Of a stretch of DNA of 64,000 nt, positions 3,820 to 57,046 are shown piece by piece. Source of the stretch: Natrialba hulunbeirensis JCM 10989 (lineage in GTDB: Archaea > Halobacteriota > Halobacteria > Halobacteriales > Natrialbaceae); the NCBI RefSeq assembly GCF_000337575.1, contig NZ_AOIM01000033.1, forward strand, positions 46,874-110,873, in the 5' to 3' direction. The translations under genes were made by a program, and so were the position numbers. Position 1 is the first letter of the stretch. Every line of letters begins with the position of its first letter. The notes below the pieces were generated by a model. It did not search any database. It was not told the DNA's origin and worked only from the letters and a program-made list of their open reading frames with translations.

Positions 3820-3948
3820 ATGCTCGGCTTCATCCCTGACGACCCCGTCATCATCGCCATCGTCGTAATCCTGCTTTCGCTCATCTTCTTTACCTACCTG
3901 CTGCTCCGGCGGACGGTACTCGAGTTCCGCGATGGTATGGGCCGGTAA
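3820..3948 (+). CDS. Small single-pass membrane protein (42 aa)
   Basis: An ATG at 3820 opens a 42-codon frame: a short N-terminus (MLGFIPDDP), one strongly hydrophobic segment (about residues 9-29) and a basic/charged C-tail (RRTVLEFRDGMGR). The arrangement is that of a single transmembrane helix with a cytoplasmic positive end. It stands alone between the aminotransferase and the convergent threonine aldolase. No family was recognised. The good helix and the charge asymmetry support a real gene. Confidence 0.55.
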   Translation: MLGFIPDDPVIIAIVVILLSLIFFTYLLLRRTVLEFRDGMGR

Positions 3949-51582: not shown

Positions 51583-52166
51583 TCACACCCAGCCACTTTC
51601 AGCGTGGTGGCCGTTCAGACAGCCAAGGAAGATTGTATCGGCACCAAGCCCCACGTTAGCAATACCAACGGCCGTTTGACTAAGTTTGTTGTGGACTTCG
51701 TCTTCGAGGGACACTGAGGGTTATCCGCGTTTCCTCGATCACGTGCTGGCCCTCGGAGACGGTATCTCACAACTCGGCTACTTCGTCAGTCAGACTGTCG
51801 TGCCCTTCGTCGGTCATCGATCCAGCGCTCTTGGTGAACCTCAAAAACCAGCGCCTGTAGTTGCCCGTCAAAGAGCGACACCACCTCGTCGATGACAGTG
51901 CTGGCAGTGGCGTCCCCGAGTGCGGCCGCGGCAATCACGTCGGCGACCTCGACGGTCCTTGTGCCCGGATGGATACGGACGTTCAAGAAGTCAGCGTCCA
52001 TGCGCTCCTCGAGTGCACGCTGAATCGGCTGGTCTAACGATTGACCGCCATCACCGAGCACGTTAAGCACCGTGTTAGGCACCTCGTCTTGACTCGTGCC
52101 AGTGCCCTTGAGGGCGCGCTGGATGGTCCCGCCGAGAGGCTGATCCTCGCCGCCGACATCGATCAT
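51583..52166 (-). pseudogene. Decayed second DUF4157 gene
   Basis: Reading from 52166, the first about 70 residues (IQRALKGTGTSQDEVP and QPIQRALEERMDADFLNVR) are a close relative of residues 88-140 of the intact DUF4157 protein. The zinc segment with HELAH is missing. From about 51829, in another frame, the C-terminal part is recognisable: SLTDEVAEL, a TGA (51767-51769) where the intact protein has Arg, TVSEGQHVIEETR, a frameshift near 51710, and SLEDEVHNKLSQTAVG. So it has an internal deletion, at least two frameshifts and a stop. It lies directly behind the partner gene. Confidence 0.85.
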
Positions 52167-52194: not shown

Positions 52195-53163
52195 TTACAC
52201 AGGTGAGAGGTACCCCGAAATGGACGCTTCGTGATCCCAGTAGTCGGGATAGAAGTCGAAATCACGGTACTTTGCGGAGTACTTGAACTTCCCGTGACCG
52301 AGTACGCGGTACTGAGCCGGCGGCTCCAGCCCCATGCTGACGAAGCAATCGCGGATCTGGCAAACGAGGATGTGGCCGACGTGGCGACGGAACTGCTCCC
52401 GGGTAAAGCCCATCGGAAGGGTTTCGATCCGAGCGTCGGGCTCGCGATCGATTGGGTCCTCGCCCTCGATAGTTTTGTAGCCGTCGGGCTCGCTGTACAT
52501 CGTGTCGAGCCCGGAGACATCCGCGATCGTCAGATCAGTGAACGAAACGTCGGGGTCGAACTCGTCGTCGGTCTGGTCGGTACCGCCACCGATGAGTGAC
52601 CGAGCTTTGGCGACGAGTCCCTGGCCTTGGGCGTCGACGAGTTCCTGAATAGTGTCCTCGCCCAGTACCTCGACCGCTGGACGTTGCAGTTGCTCTTGAA
52701 TCGTGTCGAGATCTTCTTCGAGGTAGACGTTCTGTTTGTAGACGATGAACTCCTCGTTGTAGACCGCGTCGGGAATGTCGAGTACCGGCATCACGTCCGA
52801 TCGCTCGTGACTGGCCATCTGCTCGTACAGCGTCCCGAAGTACTCGTCGAAGGCCTCGTCCTCGAGGTCCAGAACGGCCATCAGGACGGCAGCGAGCCGG
52901 TCGGGGTTGTCGGGATTCGGAACGGTGTCGTAGCCTTCCTCGCGGTAGACGTGCCAGCGGGCGAAGCGGCGGGCCTGGGAGACGCTTTCGTCTTCTGCGA
53001 ACGTCCGCTGGGATGGATCATCAGGATATCCATCTTGAGCGTGCTGTTGAACGGTCCCATTTCGGGCGATTGCAACAGCGTGCTCAGTGCCGTTGTTATC
53101 AATAATATCTACCACAGCTAGGTCGTCATTTTCTCCGTGAATTGAGCCTTCCACAGAAATCAC
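52195..53163 (-). CDS. Uncharacterised partner of the DUF4157 protein
   Basis: The 322-residue protein starts with an ATG that overlaps the DUF4157 stop by 4 bp (ATGA), so the two are translated together. No domain was recognised. It is soluble and acidic, with a compact beginning (VEGSIHGENDDLAVVDI), a helical middle (RLAAVLMAVLDLEDEAF) and a C-terminal half containing TREQFRRHVGHILVCQIRDCF and aromatic-rich FDFYPDYWDHEA. It has no signal peptide or membrane helix. Given the position, it may be a chaperone, an immunity-like protein or a cargo. This is inference only. Confidence 0.65.
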   Translation of the reverse strand: MISVEGSIHGENDDLAVVDIIDNNGTEHAVAIARNGTVQQHAQDGYPDDPSQRTFAEDESVSQARRFARWHVYREEGYDTVPNPDNPDRLAAVLMAVLDLEDEAFDEYFGTLYEQMASHERSDVMPVLDIPDAVYNEEFIVYKQNVYLEEDLDTIQEQLQRPAVEVLGEDTIQELVDAQGQGLVAKARSLIGGGTDQTDDEFDPDVSFTDLTIADVSGLDTMYSEPDGYKTIEGEDPIDREPDARIETLPMGFTREQFRRHVGHILVCQIRDCFVSMGLEPPAQYRVLGHGKFKYSAKYRDFDFYPDYWDHEASISGYLSPV

Positions 53164-54362
53164 CGGACCATATTTCTGACCGAATCTAATGTTCCACCAC
53201 TTTCTTCGCTATCGTACTGCTCTTCCTCATCAGCCTCGTCCCCGAAGAACCGTTCTTTGGCACGGTCCCAGAGGCCTTTTGCACCGGCACCGGCGGCACC
53301 GACACCGACGGCCATCAGGCTCGCAGCCATCGCGGGGGCGGCCAGTTCCGGATTCATCGCAGTCTCGGAAAGCCCCTCCTGAAGGGCGGGTTCCATCCCT
53401 GCTCGGCCGAGCGCAATGGTCCCGGCTCCAATGCCCCCAGCGGCGAGGCCCGCAGCTTTCTGTCCCAGCCCGGAGTGGACCTCGTCCTCGAGGGAGGTCA
53501 GCGAGGACTGGGTCTGTTCGATGGTCTGACTGTTTTCACTGACCTGCTCGCGAAGTTCGCTGACCTCGTCGACGAGGTCACTGATTCCCTTGTAGTTGTT
53601 CTCGACGCTGACCTCAGCAGGTGTCCGCTGCACGTGTACGTCCGTCCCCATCCGATTGACCACCAGCGGGCCCTCACCGGAGAGCGCCTGTTCAGCCGCC
53701 TGATCCGCTTCCCGCTCGAGTTGCGGATCTGGATCAATCTCGAGATCAGCGCCCTCCTTGGGCATCATCGAGATGGACGCACCGCCGTTCTGCTGTTTGA
53801 CGTGCGCCAGCTCGTGGGCCAGCAGATGCTGGCCTTCCGGACTCTCGGTATCGTACTCGCCCGAGTTGAACACGATATCGTTCCCACAGGTGAACGCCTT
53901 CGCGTCGATCGCGTCGGCCGCTTCAGCCGCCCTCCCACCAGTATGAATCCGGACGTTCGAGAAGTCCGCGTCCATGCGGTCTTCGAGCGCCCGCTGGATC
54001 GGGCCGTCTAACGGCTTCCCTCCCTGGCCGAGCACATCGAGGACTGTACCGGGAACCTCGTCCTGCGTGGTGTCGGTTCCCTCGAGTGCACGCTGAATAT
54101 GCGCGTCCGGACCAGTTGGGAGCGGCTCGAACTCGGGTAGATTCGCCTCGACCATCGCATCGAATCCCTCGGGCCGGCCGGTCAGGGCGTTGATATCGTC
54201 ACCGATACCCTGATCGAACGCTGCGGTTCCGTCCAGTGGGCCGAGTCGACTCTTCGATCGAGTCGAACTCGAGGAGCGACGCTTGGCTTCTGACTCTGAC
54301 TTCGGAGACTTGTCGGAGTCGGTCGATGTCGATGCTCGCTTGCGTGTCCGTTTCCCTCCCAT
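53160..54362 (-). CDS. DUF4157 domain protein with HELAH zinc motif (eCIS-associated type)
   Basis: The 400-residue protein has a basic, Ser-rich N-tail (about 40 residues) and two related segments, IQRALEGTDTTQ (89-100) and IQRALEDRMDADF (122-134). The DUF4157 core follows, with NVRIH, GNDIVF, HLLAHELAHVKQQ (zinc motif 183-187) and EREADQAAEQ. A coiled coil (about 255-300) and a Gly/Ala-rich hydrophobic region (300-365) end in an acidic tail. DUF4157 is enriched in extracellular contractile injection system loci, where it heads cargo proteins. The C-terminal Gly/Ala region could be a membrane-active part. It heads a two-gene operon. Confidence 0.8.
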   Translation of the reverse strand: MGGKRTRKRASTSTDSDKSPKSESEAKRRSSSSTRSKSRLGPLDGTAAFDQGIGDDINALTGRPEGFDAMVEANLPEFEPLPTGPDAHIQRALEGTDTTQDEVPGTVLDVLGQGGKPLDGPIQRALEDRMDADFSNVRIHTGGRAAEAADAIDAKAFTCGNDIVFNSGEYDTESPEGQHLLAHELAHVKQQNGGASISMMPKEGADLEIDPDPQLEREADQAAEQALSGEGPLVVNRMGTDVHVQRTPAEVSVENNYKGISDLVDEVSELREQVSENSQTIEQTQSSLTSLEDEVHSGLGQKAAGLAAGGIGAGTIALGRAGMEPALQEGLSETAMNPELAAPAMAASLMAVGVGAAGAGAKGLWDRAKERFFGDEADEEEQYDSEESGGTLDSVRNMVR

Positions 54363-54625
54363 CTACCGACTCACCACGTTGGAGGTCGTGGATTGCCGGC
54401 AGTAAGTACCAGTCCAGCAACTCATTTTGTTAAAATTGAAACTAATAGTGCTTAATAGTTACTCTCGGACGTTCTGAAGCACCAGTCAGAATCTCCGCTT
54501 CGAGAGATGAATTTACGCATAGAGCCAACTCGAGTAAAGGCACCCGACACGTTGTAGCTACTGTTTGAAAGGGGAGAGTAGTATCGAACCAGCATATATT
54601 AGTAAAAAAGCAGCTAGTCGGTAGT
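54363..54625. promoter_or_regulatory. Divergent AT-rich promoter region of the DUF4157/ATPase module
   Basis: These 263 bp are visibly more AT-rich than the surroundings. A TATA box (CATATATTAG, 54593-54602) is about 30 bp before the ATPase ATG. An AT-rich block (54424-54462, TTTTGTTAAAATTG) may serve the opposite gene. A CCACG/CGTGG inverted repeat lies at 54374-54391, just before the DUF4157 start. Confidence 0.5.
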
Positions 54626-57046
54626 ATGTACGATCACGCTGGAGACCACCTGCAAGCCGAGTTCGATCGGCTCCAGTGGCTTTTCAAGCGACTACTGGCC
54701 GAACGCGATTCCCGGGGAGAAACACGGACGAGTGCCGGTCAATTCGTACCAGTTGCGTCGCGCATTCGCGCGGTCTCGAGCGGGGACGGAACCGTGACAG
54801 ACAGCGGTGGAGATCTCCGGGCCGAACTCGCGGCTCGCGCCGAACAGATCGACGCCGATGTGACGGCTTCCCGCGAAGCCGGTGTCGATCTTCCACTGGA
54901 GACGATCAAACGGGCGTTCGACCTCTCGCGGGCCGAGCTCGACGTGTTATTGATCGTCCTCGCACCGGAGTTCGATCGCTCGATCACGACGACATATGGG
55001 AAAATCTGTGGCGTGAACAGTGCCCAGTATCCGTCCATCGATCTTCTCGAACGGGTGCGCTGCTATCTCGGTGACGACTGCGAATGCGACGATCCGTCGG
55101 CTGAACACTCCGCGTTACTCTCTCCTTCATCACCGCTCTTCGAGTATGACCTCCTCGAGCGTACTCCACGAGATCCTGGGCGGCCCGCGAGTTTCGATAC
55201 GCTCACCGTCGACGACCGTATCGTCCGGTATCTCAAGGGTTACGATAGTCTCGGCCCTCCGCTCTCCGAGCATGTCACTATCGAGTCTCACGAGCGCACG
55301 CCCGAAGACCTCGTCTTTCCCGAGGAGACTGCCAACGTACTCGAGGGAATCGCTGCGCGCTCACGCGATTCCGATCGGCCGACGATCTACTACCTCTCGG
55401 GCGAGGACGGCACCGGTAAAGACCGACTCCCCGGTGCACTCACCGATCCGGAGACGCCGATTTTGCGTGCCGATGGCGCTGCCGTGCTCGAAAACGACCT
55501 GCTCACCCGTCTCTGTCGGGAAGCAGCCCTGCAGGATGCTGCGATCCATCTCGAGGGACTCGAGACGGTGACTGGACGGGACGACGGTCCGACCGTCGAC
55601 GACGGGGAAGAAACAATCACACCGTCGACTGCCGACGACTACCCCAGCATCGACGCGCTCGTCGAGCGCATGGACGACGCGCCCGGCGATGTTTTCCTGA
55701 GCTACACCGAGCCATGGACGCCCGACGTGAACCTCACGACGCACCGACTCGAGACCTGCGACTGTCCGTTCCCCGAGTACGAGACGCGTCTGGCCGTCTG
55801 GGAAGAGTACACCGCGGAGTTCGCCGACGAGACGCTTCCCGCGGTCCTCGCGACGAACTTCCGGCTTCCACAGCGTGACATCCGTCGCGCAGTGCGGACG
55901 GCGCGGTATCTCTGCCGAACTGATGGCGGGACGGGTGACCGTGACGAGGCTAACCGCGACGTGAGCGACGACTGCACCGACGCCCCCTTCGATCCCGTTG
56001 ACGGCGCACTCGAGCGCGAACACCTCTACGAGGCCTGCAAGCGCTACTCCGCGACCACACTCGAGTCCCTCGCGGAATCGCTCGAACCGGGCTACACCTG
56101 GGAGGATATCTCGCTCAACGACAAGCCGATGACCCACCTCCAGGAGCTGGCCGGACACCTCCAGTATCGTGGCCCAGTCACCAGCGAGTGGGGCTTTGGC
56201 GAACCTGGCAGCCGCGGCGACGGCATCGTGGCGCTCTTTTACGGGCAACCGGGGACCGGGAAGACGATGGCCGCCGAGATCATCGCGGCCGAGACCGGGC
56301 TCGATCTCTACCGCGTCGACCTCTCGCAGGTGATCAACAAGTACATCGGCGAAACGGAGAGTCGGCTGGCGACGCTGCTAGACGAGGCTGAACGATCGAA
56401 CGCGATTTTGCTGTTCGACGAAGCGGATGCCATCTTCGGCAAGCGCGCCGAAGTCACGGACGCGACGGACCGCTACGCCAACACGGAGATCAACTTCCTG
56501 CTCCAGCGACTCGAGTCGTTCGACGGTATCCTCTTACTGACGACGAACAAGGAGACGGGGATCGATCCGGCGTTCAAACGCCGCATCGACCACTCGATTC
56601 AGTTCGACAAACCGCAGGAACTCATCCGCCGCGAGCTCTGGCGGGACGCCTTCCCGGAGGGTGCGTCCGTCGACACCGAGACGTTCGATTACGAGTTCCT
56701 CGGGCGTATCGCCATCACGCCCGCACTGATCCGCAAGGTCGCGAAGTATGCTGCGTACATCGCTGCCACCCAGGCCCACGAGGGTCGGGTGTTCGAGGCT
56801 GGTAGTGCAAGCGCAGGCGCAGGTGCAGGTACAGGTCCGAACTCGCTCGCTGACGTGACGATCACCTTCGAACACGTCATCCTCGCTCTCCAGTACGCAC
56901 GCGAAGCGGGCGGTGGTGGCTTCGAGGTCGACTTCCGAGAGTACGACGATAAACGGCGCAGCTACGACAGCGCCAGCGTCGACCGCGACTGGCGAGCGGA
57001 ACTCAAACGGACGTACGGTGAGGAGTCAGCGGGAAAGGCGGAGTAA
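54626..57046 (+). CDS. Two-module AAA+ ATPase of the eCIS (Afp15/Pvc15-like) type
   Basis: The 806-residue protein has an N-terminal domain with RAFDLSRAELDVLLIVLAPEFDRS and YPSIDLLERV (90-145), characteristic of eCIS ATPases. A degenerate first AAA-like module (about 250-430) has GEDGTGKD but no clear Walker B. The active C-terminal AAA module has GQPGTGKT (540-547), ILLFDEADAIFG (594-605), sensor TTN (639-641) and an FKRRI arginine region. In eCIS loci such ATPases sit next to the tube and baseplate genes and probably act in assembly. Here the neighbours are the DUF4157 pair, divergently transcribed. ATG start is supported by a TATA box at -30. Confidence 0.85.
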   Translation: MYDHAGDHLQAEFDRLQWLFKRLLAERDSRGETRTSAGQFVPVASRIRAVSSGDGTVTDSGGDLRAELAARAEQIDADVTASREAGVDLPLETIKRAFDLSRAELDVLLIVLAPEFDRSITTTYGKICGVNSAQYPSIDLLERVRCYLGDDCECDDPSAEHSALLSPSSPLFEYDLLERTPRDPGRPASFDTLTVDDRIVRYLKGYDSLGPPLSEHVTIESHERTPEDLVFPEETANVLEGIAARSRDSDRPTIYYLSGEDGTGKDRLPGALTDPETPILRADGAAVLENDLLTRLCREAALQDAAIHLEGLETVTGRDDGPTVDDGEETITPSTADDYPSIDALVERMDDAPGDVFLSYTEPWTPDVNLTTHRLETCDCPFPEYETRLAVWEEYTAEFADETLPAVLATNFRLPQRDIRRAVRTARYLCRTDGGTGDRDEANRDVSDDCTDAPFDPVDGALEREHLYEACKRYSATTLESLAESLEPGYTWEDISLNDKPMTHLQELAGHLQYRGPVTSEWGFGEPGSRGDGIVALFYGQPGTGKTMAAEIIAAETGLDLYRVDLSQVINKYIGETESRLATLLDEAERSNAILLFDEADAIFGKRAEVTDATDRYANTEINFLLQRLESFDGILLLTTNKETGIDPAFKRRIDHSIQFDKPQELIRRELWRDAFPEGASVDTETFDYEFLGRIAITPALIRKVAKYAAYIAATQAHEGRVFEAGSASAGAGAGTGPNSLADVTITFEHVILALQYAREAGGGGFEVDFREYDDKRRSYDSASVDRDWRAELKRTYGEESAGKAE

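What the first reader, a model, noticed from the sequence alone, without database searches (positions are those of the whole stretch)
52195..57046. eCIS-like module: DUF4157 protein, coupled unknown partner and divergent two-module AAA+ ATPase
An ATPase with the N-terminal signature of contractile-injection-system ATPases sits next to a DUF4157 protein with an HELAH motif, which co-occurs with eCIS cargo. No tube, sheath, spike or baseplate gene is visible in the 64 kb. This may be a flank of a locus outside the window, or a detached module with its own role, such as cargo processing or defence. The divergent AT-rich promoter and the 4-bp gene overlap indicate a functional unit.
Basis: partly seen in the sequence, partly recalled or inferred. 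Interest (0 to 1): 0.75.

Follow-up and report, generated by a model that had tools for sequence, protein, structure and literature searches.

The report
Detached archaeal T6SS toxin–immunity island
The three genes look like one of about a dozen and a half scattered toxin-plus-protector cassettes that a salt-loving archaeon loads into its contractile injection machine (encoded elsewhere in the same genome), here still carrying the motor protein that probably loads the toxin; the kind of system is known, but its swappable-tip design with spare cassettes and its unplaced protector fold are newly laid out here.

Summary
The genome has a contractile injection system (CIS) split over two other contigs: sheath, tubes, CIS13 and Pvc16 on C22; baseplate, hub and spike on C26. 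It holds 19 eCIS_core matches and about 16 partner genes dispersed over the genome. In 116 haloarchaeal genomes the ATPase occurs only with a sheath (14 of 14; Fisher p = 4e-17), and in 15 of 19 loci it stands divergent from DUF4157–partner, as in the window. The DUF4157 protein is a polymorphic toxin: a conserved delivery half, then a swappable, usually hydrophobic tip of about 150 residues. Tip and partner co-vary (83 pairs, r = 0.83); delivery half and partner do not (r = 0.11). Spare cassettes (tip plus partner, no delivery domain) exist. Other tips have other downstream genes (deaminase with SUKH immunity). The partner is therefore most likely cognate immunity, with no matching fold in PDB or viral libraries. 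The ATPase groups with CIS ATPases, away from CDC48/PAN. DUF4157 toxin–immunity pairs of an archaeal T6SS were demonstrated in Halogeometricum (PMC11566945), so this is a variant of a known kind, not a new system. Biochemical activity was not tested.

The parts
53160..54362 (-). DUF4157/eCIS_core effector gene (400 aa): basic disordered N-terminus, eCIS_core domain, C-terminal variable tip
   Evidence: Pfam PF13699 E=7e-33; AF2 confident only over about residues 80-190
53781..54014 (-). eCIS_core domain (residues 117-194) with HELAH motif (residues 183-187)
   Evidence: sequence
53160..53624 (-). variable toxin tip (154 aa after ...VNRMGTDVHVQR) with two hydrophobic Gly/Ala-rich segments, plus stop codon
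   Evidence: DNA homology to other effector genes of this genome stops at this boundary; hydrophobicity peaks 1.14 and 1.61
52195..53163 (-). partner gene (322 aa, GTG start, 4-bp overlap with the effector): putative cognate immunity protein
   Evidence: co-varies with the tip; AF2 pLDDT 89.7, no fold match; no Pfam, PHROG or NCBIfam hit
54626..57046 (+). CIS-type AAA+ ATPase (806 aa): N-terminal WHD variant, degenerate first AAA module, active-looking second AAA module (about 56231-56608); putative effector-loading ATPase
   Evidence: PF22977 and PF00004; tree
51786..52166 (-). degraded second DUF4157 copy (126 aa ORF, partial eCIS_core), a remnant behind the pair
   Evidence: E=1e-5
54363..54462 (-). 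promoter/leader block shared with effector genes at other loci; holds a 20-codon upstream ORF (54363-54425) whose TAG stop abuts the effector ATG

Best explanation
The trio is a detached effector island of the organism's own haloarchaeal contractile injection system (T6SS-like CIS). The DUF4157 protein is a polymorphic toxin: its conserved half (basic disordered N-terminus plus eCIS_core) serves delivery, and its variable C-terminal tip, with two hydrophobic Gly/Ala-rich segments, is the toxic part, probably acting on membranes. The overlapping downstream gene encodes the cognate immunity protein that protects the producer and its siblings. The divergent AAA+ ATPase is the CIS ATPase that probably helps load effectors onto the machine before firing. 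Tip-plus-immunity cassettes recombine behind the conserved delivery half; spare cassettes elsewhere in the genome are a reservoir. SHOWN here by sequence: CIS structural genes in the genome, ATPase family, gene order conservation, modular exchange, tip-partner covariation. INFERRED: toxicity, membrane action, immunity, loading.
For: CIS genes in the same genome: sheath, tubes, Pvc16, CIS13 family E=5e-173; baseplate J x2, hub, CIS_tube-LysM, spike, tail I. 19 eCIS_core and 19 partner matches dispersed. Same ATPase | DUF4157-partner order inside the CIS locus of Haloferax larsenii pHl5678-1 and at 15 of 19 ATPase loci in the order. ATPase in 14 of 116 genomes, all sheath-positive, p=3.7e-17. 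Tip-partner identity r=0.90 in own genome (p=2e-4) and 0.83 over 83 pairs; delivery half-partner -0.09 and 0.11. DNA homology ends at the tip boundary; an orphan cassette on C7 covers only the end of the front half, the tip and the partner. Deaminase tip with SUKH downstream on C38. Runs of partner-like genes without toxin genes, and distant partners paired with zipper tips on membrane proteins in genomes without a CIS. DUF4157 proteins secreted T6SS-dependently, toxicity rescued by the downstream gene in Halogeometricum borinquense (PMC11566945); Pvc15 ATPase associates effectors with PVC (PMC11495950).
Against: No wet-lab test of this locus. I could not obtain the H. borinquense toxin/immunity sequences, so homology of this partner to the tested immunity proteins is not shown. 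A paralogous partner-family clade sits next to CIS13 in CIS core loci without a tip gene, which would also fit an adaptor role. Immunity to pore formers is usually a membrane protein (general knowledge), whereas the partner looks soluble. The tip was modelled with very low confidence. The genome is a 48-contig draft, so how C22, C26 and C33 join is unknown.
Confidence: 0.78

Rival explanations
1. The partner is a tip-specific chaperone/adaptor (like Eag proteins of bacterial T6SS) that shields the hydrophobic tip and hands the effector to the ATPase and machine, rather than an immunity protein.
For: Soluble predicted fold, hydrophobic tips (71 of 83 with a 19-residue window mean of at least 1.0), translational coupling, and a conserved partner paralog clade without a tip gene, beside CIS13 in most CIS core loci that have it.
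Against: Distant partners pair with zipper tips on polytopic membrane proteins in genomes with no sheath and no DUF4157 (G001, G109), so the family is not tied to CIS loading; runs of consecutive partner-like genes without tips (L156, L157); other tip classes have other downstream families, including a SUKH immunity protein.
Confidence: 0.22
2. The module was retained for another, CIS-independent role (intracellular protein quality control or anti-phage defence), with the DUF4157 protein acting as a metallopeptidase on cell proteins.
For: Detached from structural genes; HExxH motif present; one genome (G101) has DUF4157 and partners without a sheath; weak similarity of the second AAA module to the anti-phage ATPase IteA, far below its cut-off.
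Against: ATPase never found without a sheath in 116 genomes; tip diversity and covariation are the mark of conflict systems; ATPases of the window's detached clade are the only ones in four genomes that carry CIS sheaths.
Confidence: 0.06
3. A decaying relic: the island is a non-functional duplicate being lost (note the broken DUF4157 copy behind it).
For: Remnant at 51786-52166; several broken copies elsewhere in the genome.
Against: All three main ORFs are intact, retain motifs, keep the shared promoter/leader block, and have close intact relatives in other species (84% partner identity in Natrialba sp. SSL1, 80% in a genome of another family).
Confidence: 0.08

Closest known systems
Halogeometricum borinquense T6SS (archaeal CIS) DUF4157 toxin-immunity pairs (PMC11566945)
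   Same: DUF4157 protein followed by a downstream partner gene, dispersed in the genome as well as at the CIS locus; haloarchaeal CIS with sheath, tubes, baseplate, ATPase
   Different: Here the structural genes are split over two contigs, the ATPase lies with the effector instead of with them, there are about 16 partner genes, and spare tip-partner cassettes; sequence relation of the partners to the tested Hbor immunity proteins not tested
eCIS-associated toxins with an N-terminal DUF4157 domain (PMC11297309, PMC8213781)
   Same: eCIS_core/DUF4157 in the delivery half, C-terminal toxin
   Different: Most described ones lie within ten genes of the eCIS operon; this set is dispersed, each with a coupled partner gene
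Pvc15-type eCIS AAA+ ATPase (PMC11495950)
   Same: N-terminal domain plus two AAA modules, second one active-looking; groups with a Nostoc eCIS ATPase apart from CDC48/PAN
   Different: Detached from the structural operon and paired with its own effector; Pvc15 itself was not in the tree
Polymorphic toxin systems (Rhs/CdiA/WXG type; PMC3482391, which already lists haloarchaeal PVC-delivered toxins with variable C-termini)
   Same: Conserved trafficking half, variable tip, adjacent cognate immunity gene, orphan tip-immunity cassettes
   Different: Delivery half is DUF4157/CIS; the immunity family and its predicted fold match nothing in the libraries searched

Membership tests
CIS/T6SS effector with DUF4157 (eCIS_core) | eCIS_core domain above curated cut-off with HExxH | tested here: met
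   113 bits vs cut-off 22; HELAH
CIS/T6SS effector with DUF4157 (eCIS_core) | CIS structural genes (sheath, tube, baseplate, spike) in the same genome | tested here: met
CIS/T6SS effector with DUF4157 (eCIS_core) | sheath-dependent secretion | not testable with these tools
   shown only for H. borinquense DUF4157 proteins (PMC11566945)
Polymorphic toxin system | conserved N-terminal delivery half with variable C-terminal tip | tested here: met
   130-residue N part usually 70-90% identical among full-length copies, tips mostly 20-30%; DNA homology stops at the junction
Polymorphic toxin system | tip and downstream gene co-vary as a cassette | tested here: met
   r=0.90 own genome; r=0.83 over 83 pairs
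Polymorphic toxin system | orphan tip-immunity cassettes lacking the delivery domain | tested here: met
   C7, C6 and C20 cassettes of 187-259 aa followed by partner genes
Polymorphic toxin system | tip toxic and partner neutralises it | not testable with these tools
   needs expression in a haloarchaeal host
CIS (Pvc15-type) AAA+ ATPase | groups with CIS ATPases, apart from CDC48/PAN | tested here: met
   branch 2.22, support 100/99 separates CIS ATPases incl. a Nostoc eCIS one from own-genome CDC48 and other AAA proteins
CIS (Pvc15-type) AAA+ ATPase | linked to CIS structural genes | tested here: met
   co-occurrence 14 of 14 genomes with sheath; physically linked in H. larsenii and several genomes, not in the window
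CIS (Pvc15-type) AAA+ ATPase | loads effectors | not testable with these tools
   inferred from PMC11495950
Complete CIS locus in the window | sheath, tube, baseplate beside the trio | tested here: not met
   structural genes lie on contigs C22 and C26, not C33

The most novel reading that the evidence does not exclude
Haloarchaea hold one large superfamily of soluble immunity proteins with an undescribed fold, each matched to a membrane-inserting (glycine-zipper) toxin tip, and these tip-immunity cassettes are shared between two quite different delivery modules: DUF4157 proteins of a contractile injection system and polytopic membrane proteins in genomes without one. Effector islands that broke away from the CIS locus keep a loader ATPase of their own clade, so an effector set and its loader travel together apart from the machine.
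Probability: 0.45. Interest if true: 0.65.

Novelty: new variant of a known kind. Interest (0 to 1): 0.5.

Why it matters
Archaeal cell-to-cell killing by injection was shown only in 2024, for one toxin set. This locus and its relatives show that in haloarchaea the effectors form a large, recombining, polymorphic arsenal with spare cassettes, explain where the toxins of a CIS may sit when none is near the machine, and predict cognate toxin–immunity pairs that can be tested directly in Haloferax volcanii. The ATPase that in bacteria sits in the CIS operon here sits with an effector, which makes its proposed loading role testable.

Tried and rejected
H. borinquense plasmid accessions tried from memory are not in the collections, and the named-genome scan did not return that species, so the direct link to the tested Hbor immunity proteins stayed open. 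Fold searches of the partner model in PDB and BFVD gave no match at E<=0.001. The structure of the full DUF4157 protein was poor (pLDDT 55.6; only the core region is confident), so no fold search was made with it. Considered and rejected: ordinary CDC48/PAN/FtsH ATPase (PDB and NCBIfam best hits are CDC48/p97-like by the AAA module alone, but tree and gene context say CIS); defence system (IteA similarity far below cut-off); flank of a CIS locus just outside the window (structural genes on other contigs). Leader peptide as a conserved protein: rejected, because its codons change at non-synonymous sites while only the frame and the TAG|ATG junction persist.

Full report
OBSERVATION. The DUF4157 gene (53160-54362, minus strand) ends in GTGA, in which its stop and the GTG start of the partner gene (52195-53163) overlap by 4 bp. 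The ATPase (54626-57046, plus strand) is divergent; the 263-bp spacer is 55% AT, with a 100-bp peak of 63% against a window mean of 37%. Pfam gives eCIS_core (7e-33) for the first, nothing for the partner, and a winged-helix variant (PF22977) plus AAA for the ATPase. A degraded second DUF4157 ORF lies behind the pair (51786-52166).

THE MACHINE IS ELSEWHERE IN THE GENOME. The window lies on contig C33 of a 4.16-Mb draft in 48 contigs; the closest named relatives of the partner gene are from Natrialba, so the organism is probably Natrialba or close to it (inference). Sheath, two tube proteins, Pvc16 and a CIS13-family protein (5e-173) sit together on C22. Two baseplate J proteins, tail protein I, hub, spike and a CIS_tube-LysM protein sit on C26 at about 42-54 kb. 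No ATPase of this type was found in the stretches read around either cluster. The only two WHD ATPases of the genome are the window's and one on C26 at about 102 kb, and each is divergent from DUF4157 genes.

CO-OCCURRENCE. In the same 116 genomes of the order, a sheath occurs in 15, the WHD ATPase in 14 (all sheath-positive; Fisher p=3.7e-17), strong DUF4157 hits in 14 (13 sheath-positive; p=2.6e-14), and strong partner hits in 12 (11 sheath-positive; the exception is G101). 15 of 19 ATPase loci have the divergent ATPase | DUF4157–partner order. Of the other four, one ends at a contig edge (G039), one has no eCIS_core match (G035), and two have a DUF4157 gene on the other side (G048, G058). 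In Haloferax larsenii plasmid pHl5678-1 the same trio lies directly beside sheath, tubes and DUF4255/Pvc16. So the trio is normally a CIS component, and in the window it is a detached copy. In the ATPase tree the CIS ATPases, including one from a Nostoc eCIS locus, are separated from own-genome CDC48 and other AAA proteins by a branch of 2.22 (100/99). The window's ATPase groups (93/100) with four others that likewise lie away from the sheath. Tree caveat: one row (L054 first domain) has an extremely long branch, and the fork that holds the window's clade is below the star threshold on bootstrap.

MODULAR TOXIN. The genome's DUF4157 proteins share a 245-residue front half that ends in VNRMGTDVHIQR, followed by unrelated tips. 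At DNA level the window gene matches three other effector genes (C20, C6, C14) from about 100 bp upstream of the start to the tip boundary within 3 bp (matches end at query 3876, 3876 and 3879; tip starts at 3877). A C7 cassette without a delivery domain matches only the end of the front half, the tip and the partner. Over 15 pairs in the genome, tip and partner identities correlate at r=0.90 (permutation p=2e-4), front half and partner at -0.09. Over 83 non-redundant pairs from many haloarchaea the values are 0.83 and 0.11; 60 of 67 tips with a relative of at least 45% identity have a partner that is also the (near-)closest. Two DUF4157 proteins of the genome have different tips and different downstream genes: a deaminase toxin tip (PF14424) followed by a SUKH/SMI1 immunity protein on C38, and an unknown tip followed by a 113-aa ORF on C10. 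This is the pattern of polymorphic toxins with cognate immunity genes.

WHAT THE TIP AND PARTNER MAY DO. The window tip has two hydrophobic Gly/Ala-rich segments (Kyte-Doolittle means 1.14 and 1.61 over 19 residues). 71 of 83 tips reach at least 1.0, whereas no front half reaches 1.3. Membrane insertion is therefore the likeliest action, an inference only. A tip of the same class occurs in Haloferax elongans (L078), whose T6SS lyses H. volcanii on contact (PMC11566945); that this tip causes the lysis is not shown. The partner is predicted with high confidence (pLDDT 89.7, pTM 0.90) and has no match in PDB or viral structures. Distant members of its family occur in two genomes without a sheath or DUF4157 (G001, G109), placed after proteins with many membrane segments or glycine-zipper ends and after short orphan tips, and in runs of partner-like genes without toxin genes (L156, L157). 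Both facts favour immunity over a CIS-specific adaptor. Against this stands a clade of partner paralogs in the CIS core loci, mostly next to CIS13, without a tip.

RELATION TO WHAT IS KNOWN. Zhang et al. 2012 noted haloarchaeal PVC-delivered toxins with variable C-termini (PMC3482391). The H. borinquense T6SS work showed sheath-dependent secretion of DUF4157 proteins, toxicity of some in H. volcanii and rescue by the downstream gene, with some pairs away from the cluster (PMC11566945). DUF4157 is a known marker of eCIS toxins (PMC11297309), and the ATPase Pvc15 associates effectors with the PVC (PMC11495950). The window module therefore belongs to a known kind. What I did not find described in the papers read is the statistical demonstration of tip–partner exchange with orphan cassettes in haloarchaea, ATPases that travel with effectors apart from the machine, the partner's unmatched fold, and sharing of the partner family with a second delivery context.

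SHOWN VERSUS INFERRED. Shown by computation: families, gene order, co-occurrence, recombination boundary, covariation, tree position, fold confidence. Taken from papers on relatives: secretion, toxicity and rescue. Inferred: that this tip is toxic and acts on membranes, that this partner is its immunity protein, that this ATPase loads it.

Noticed in passing
54363-54425 (minus strand), and upstream of effector genes in L012, L013, L014, L016, L017, L018, L071, L112, L130, L140, L122, L118: Effector genes with the Arg/Lys-rich N-terminus are preceded by a 17-23 codon upstream ORF whose TAG stop directly abuts the effector ATG, with an A/T-rich TATA-like stretch roughly 20-30 bp before the small ORF's ATG in most; the frame persists where the sequence has diverged. 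It may be a leaderless leader peptide with translational coupling.
   Followed up: partly
L010:16079-17344 (C22) and relatives in L053, L058, L062, L161, L162: A clade of partner paralogs without a toxin tip, next to CIS13 in most of the CIS core loci; possible core immunity or adaptor.
   Followed up: partly
L152, L153, L154: A second haloarchaeal polymorphic-toxin-like system: polytopic membrane proteins (VirB6/TrbL-like in look only, no Pfam hit) with glycine-zipper ends, orphan tips and distant partner-family genes, in genomes without a CIS sheath.
   Followed up: partly
L018:5476-7249 (C38): DUF4157 protein with a deaminase toxin tip (PF14424) and a SUKH/SMI1 immunity gene directly downstream.
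   Followed up: yes
L019:13663-18001 (C26): A long array of regularly spaced short direct repeats (seen as repeated LQPYKGSSET/FNPTKVRLK in translation), probably a CRISPR array, beside the C26 effector island.
   Followed up: no
L064 and L065: In genome G106 the ATPase-effector island is present twice about 2.1 Mb apart with nearly identical ATPase and first effector, once linked to the sheath operon and once detached: a recent duplication that shows how detached islands may arise.
   Followed up: partly
L019:1413-2625 (C26): ATPase-like ORF fragments behind the intact C26 ATPase, possibly remnants of a broken second copy.
   Followed up: no
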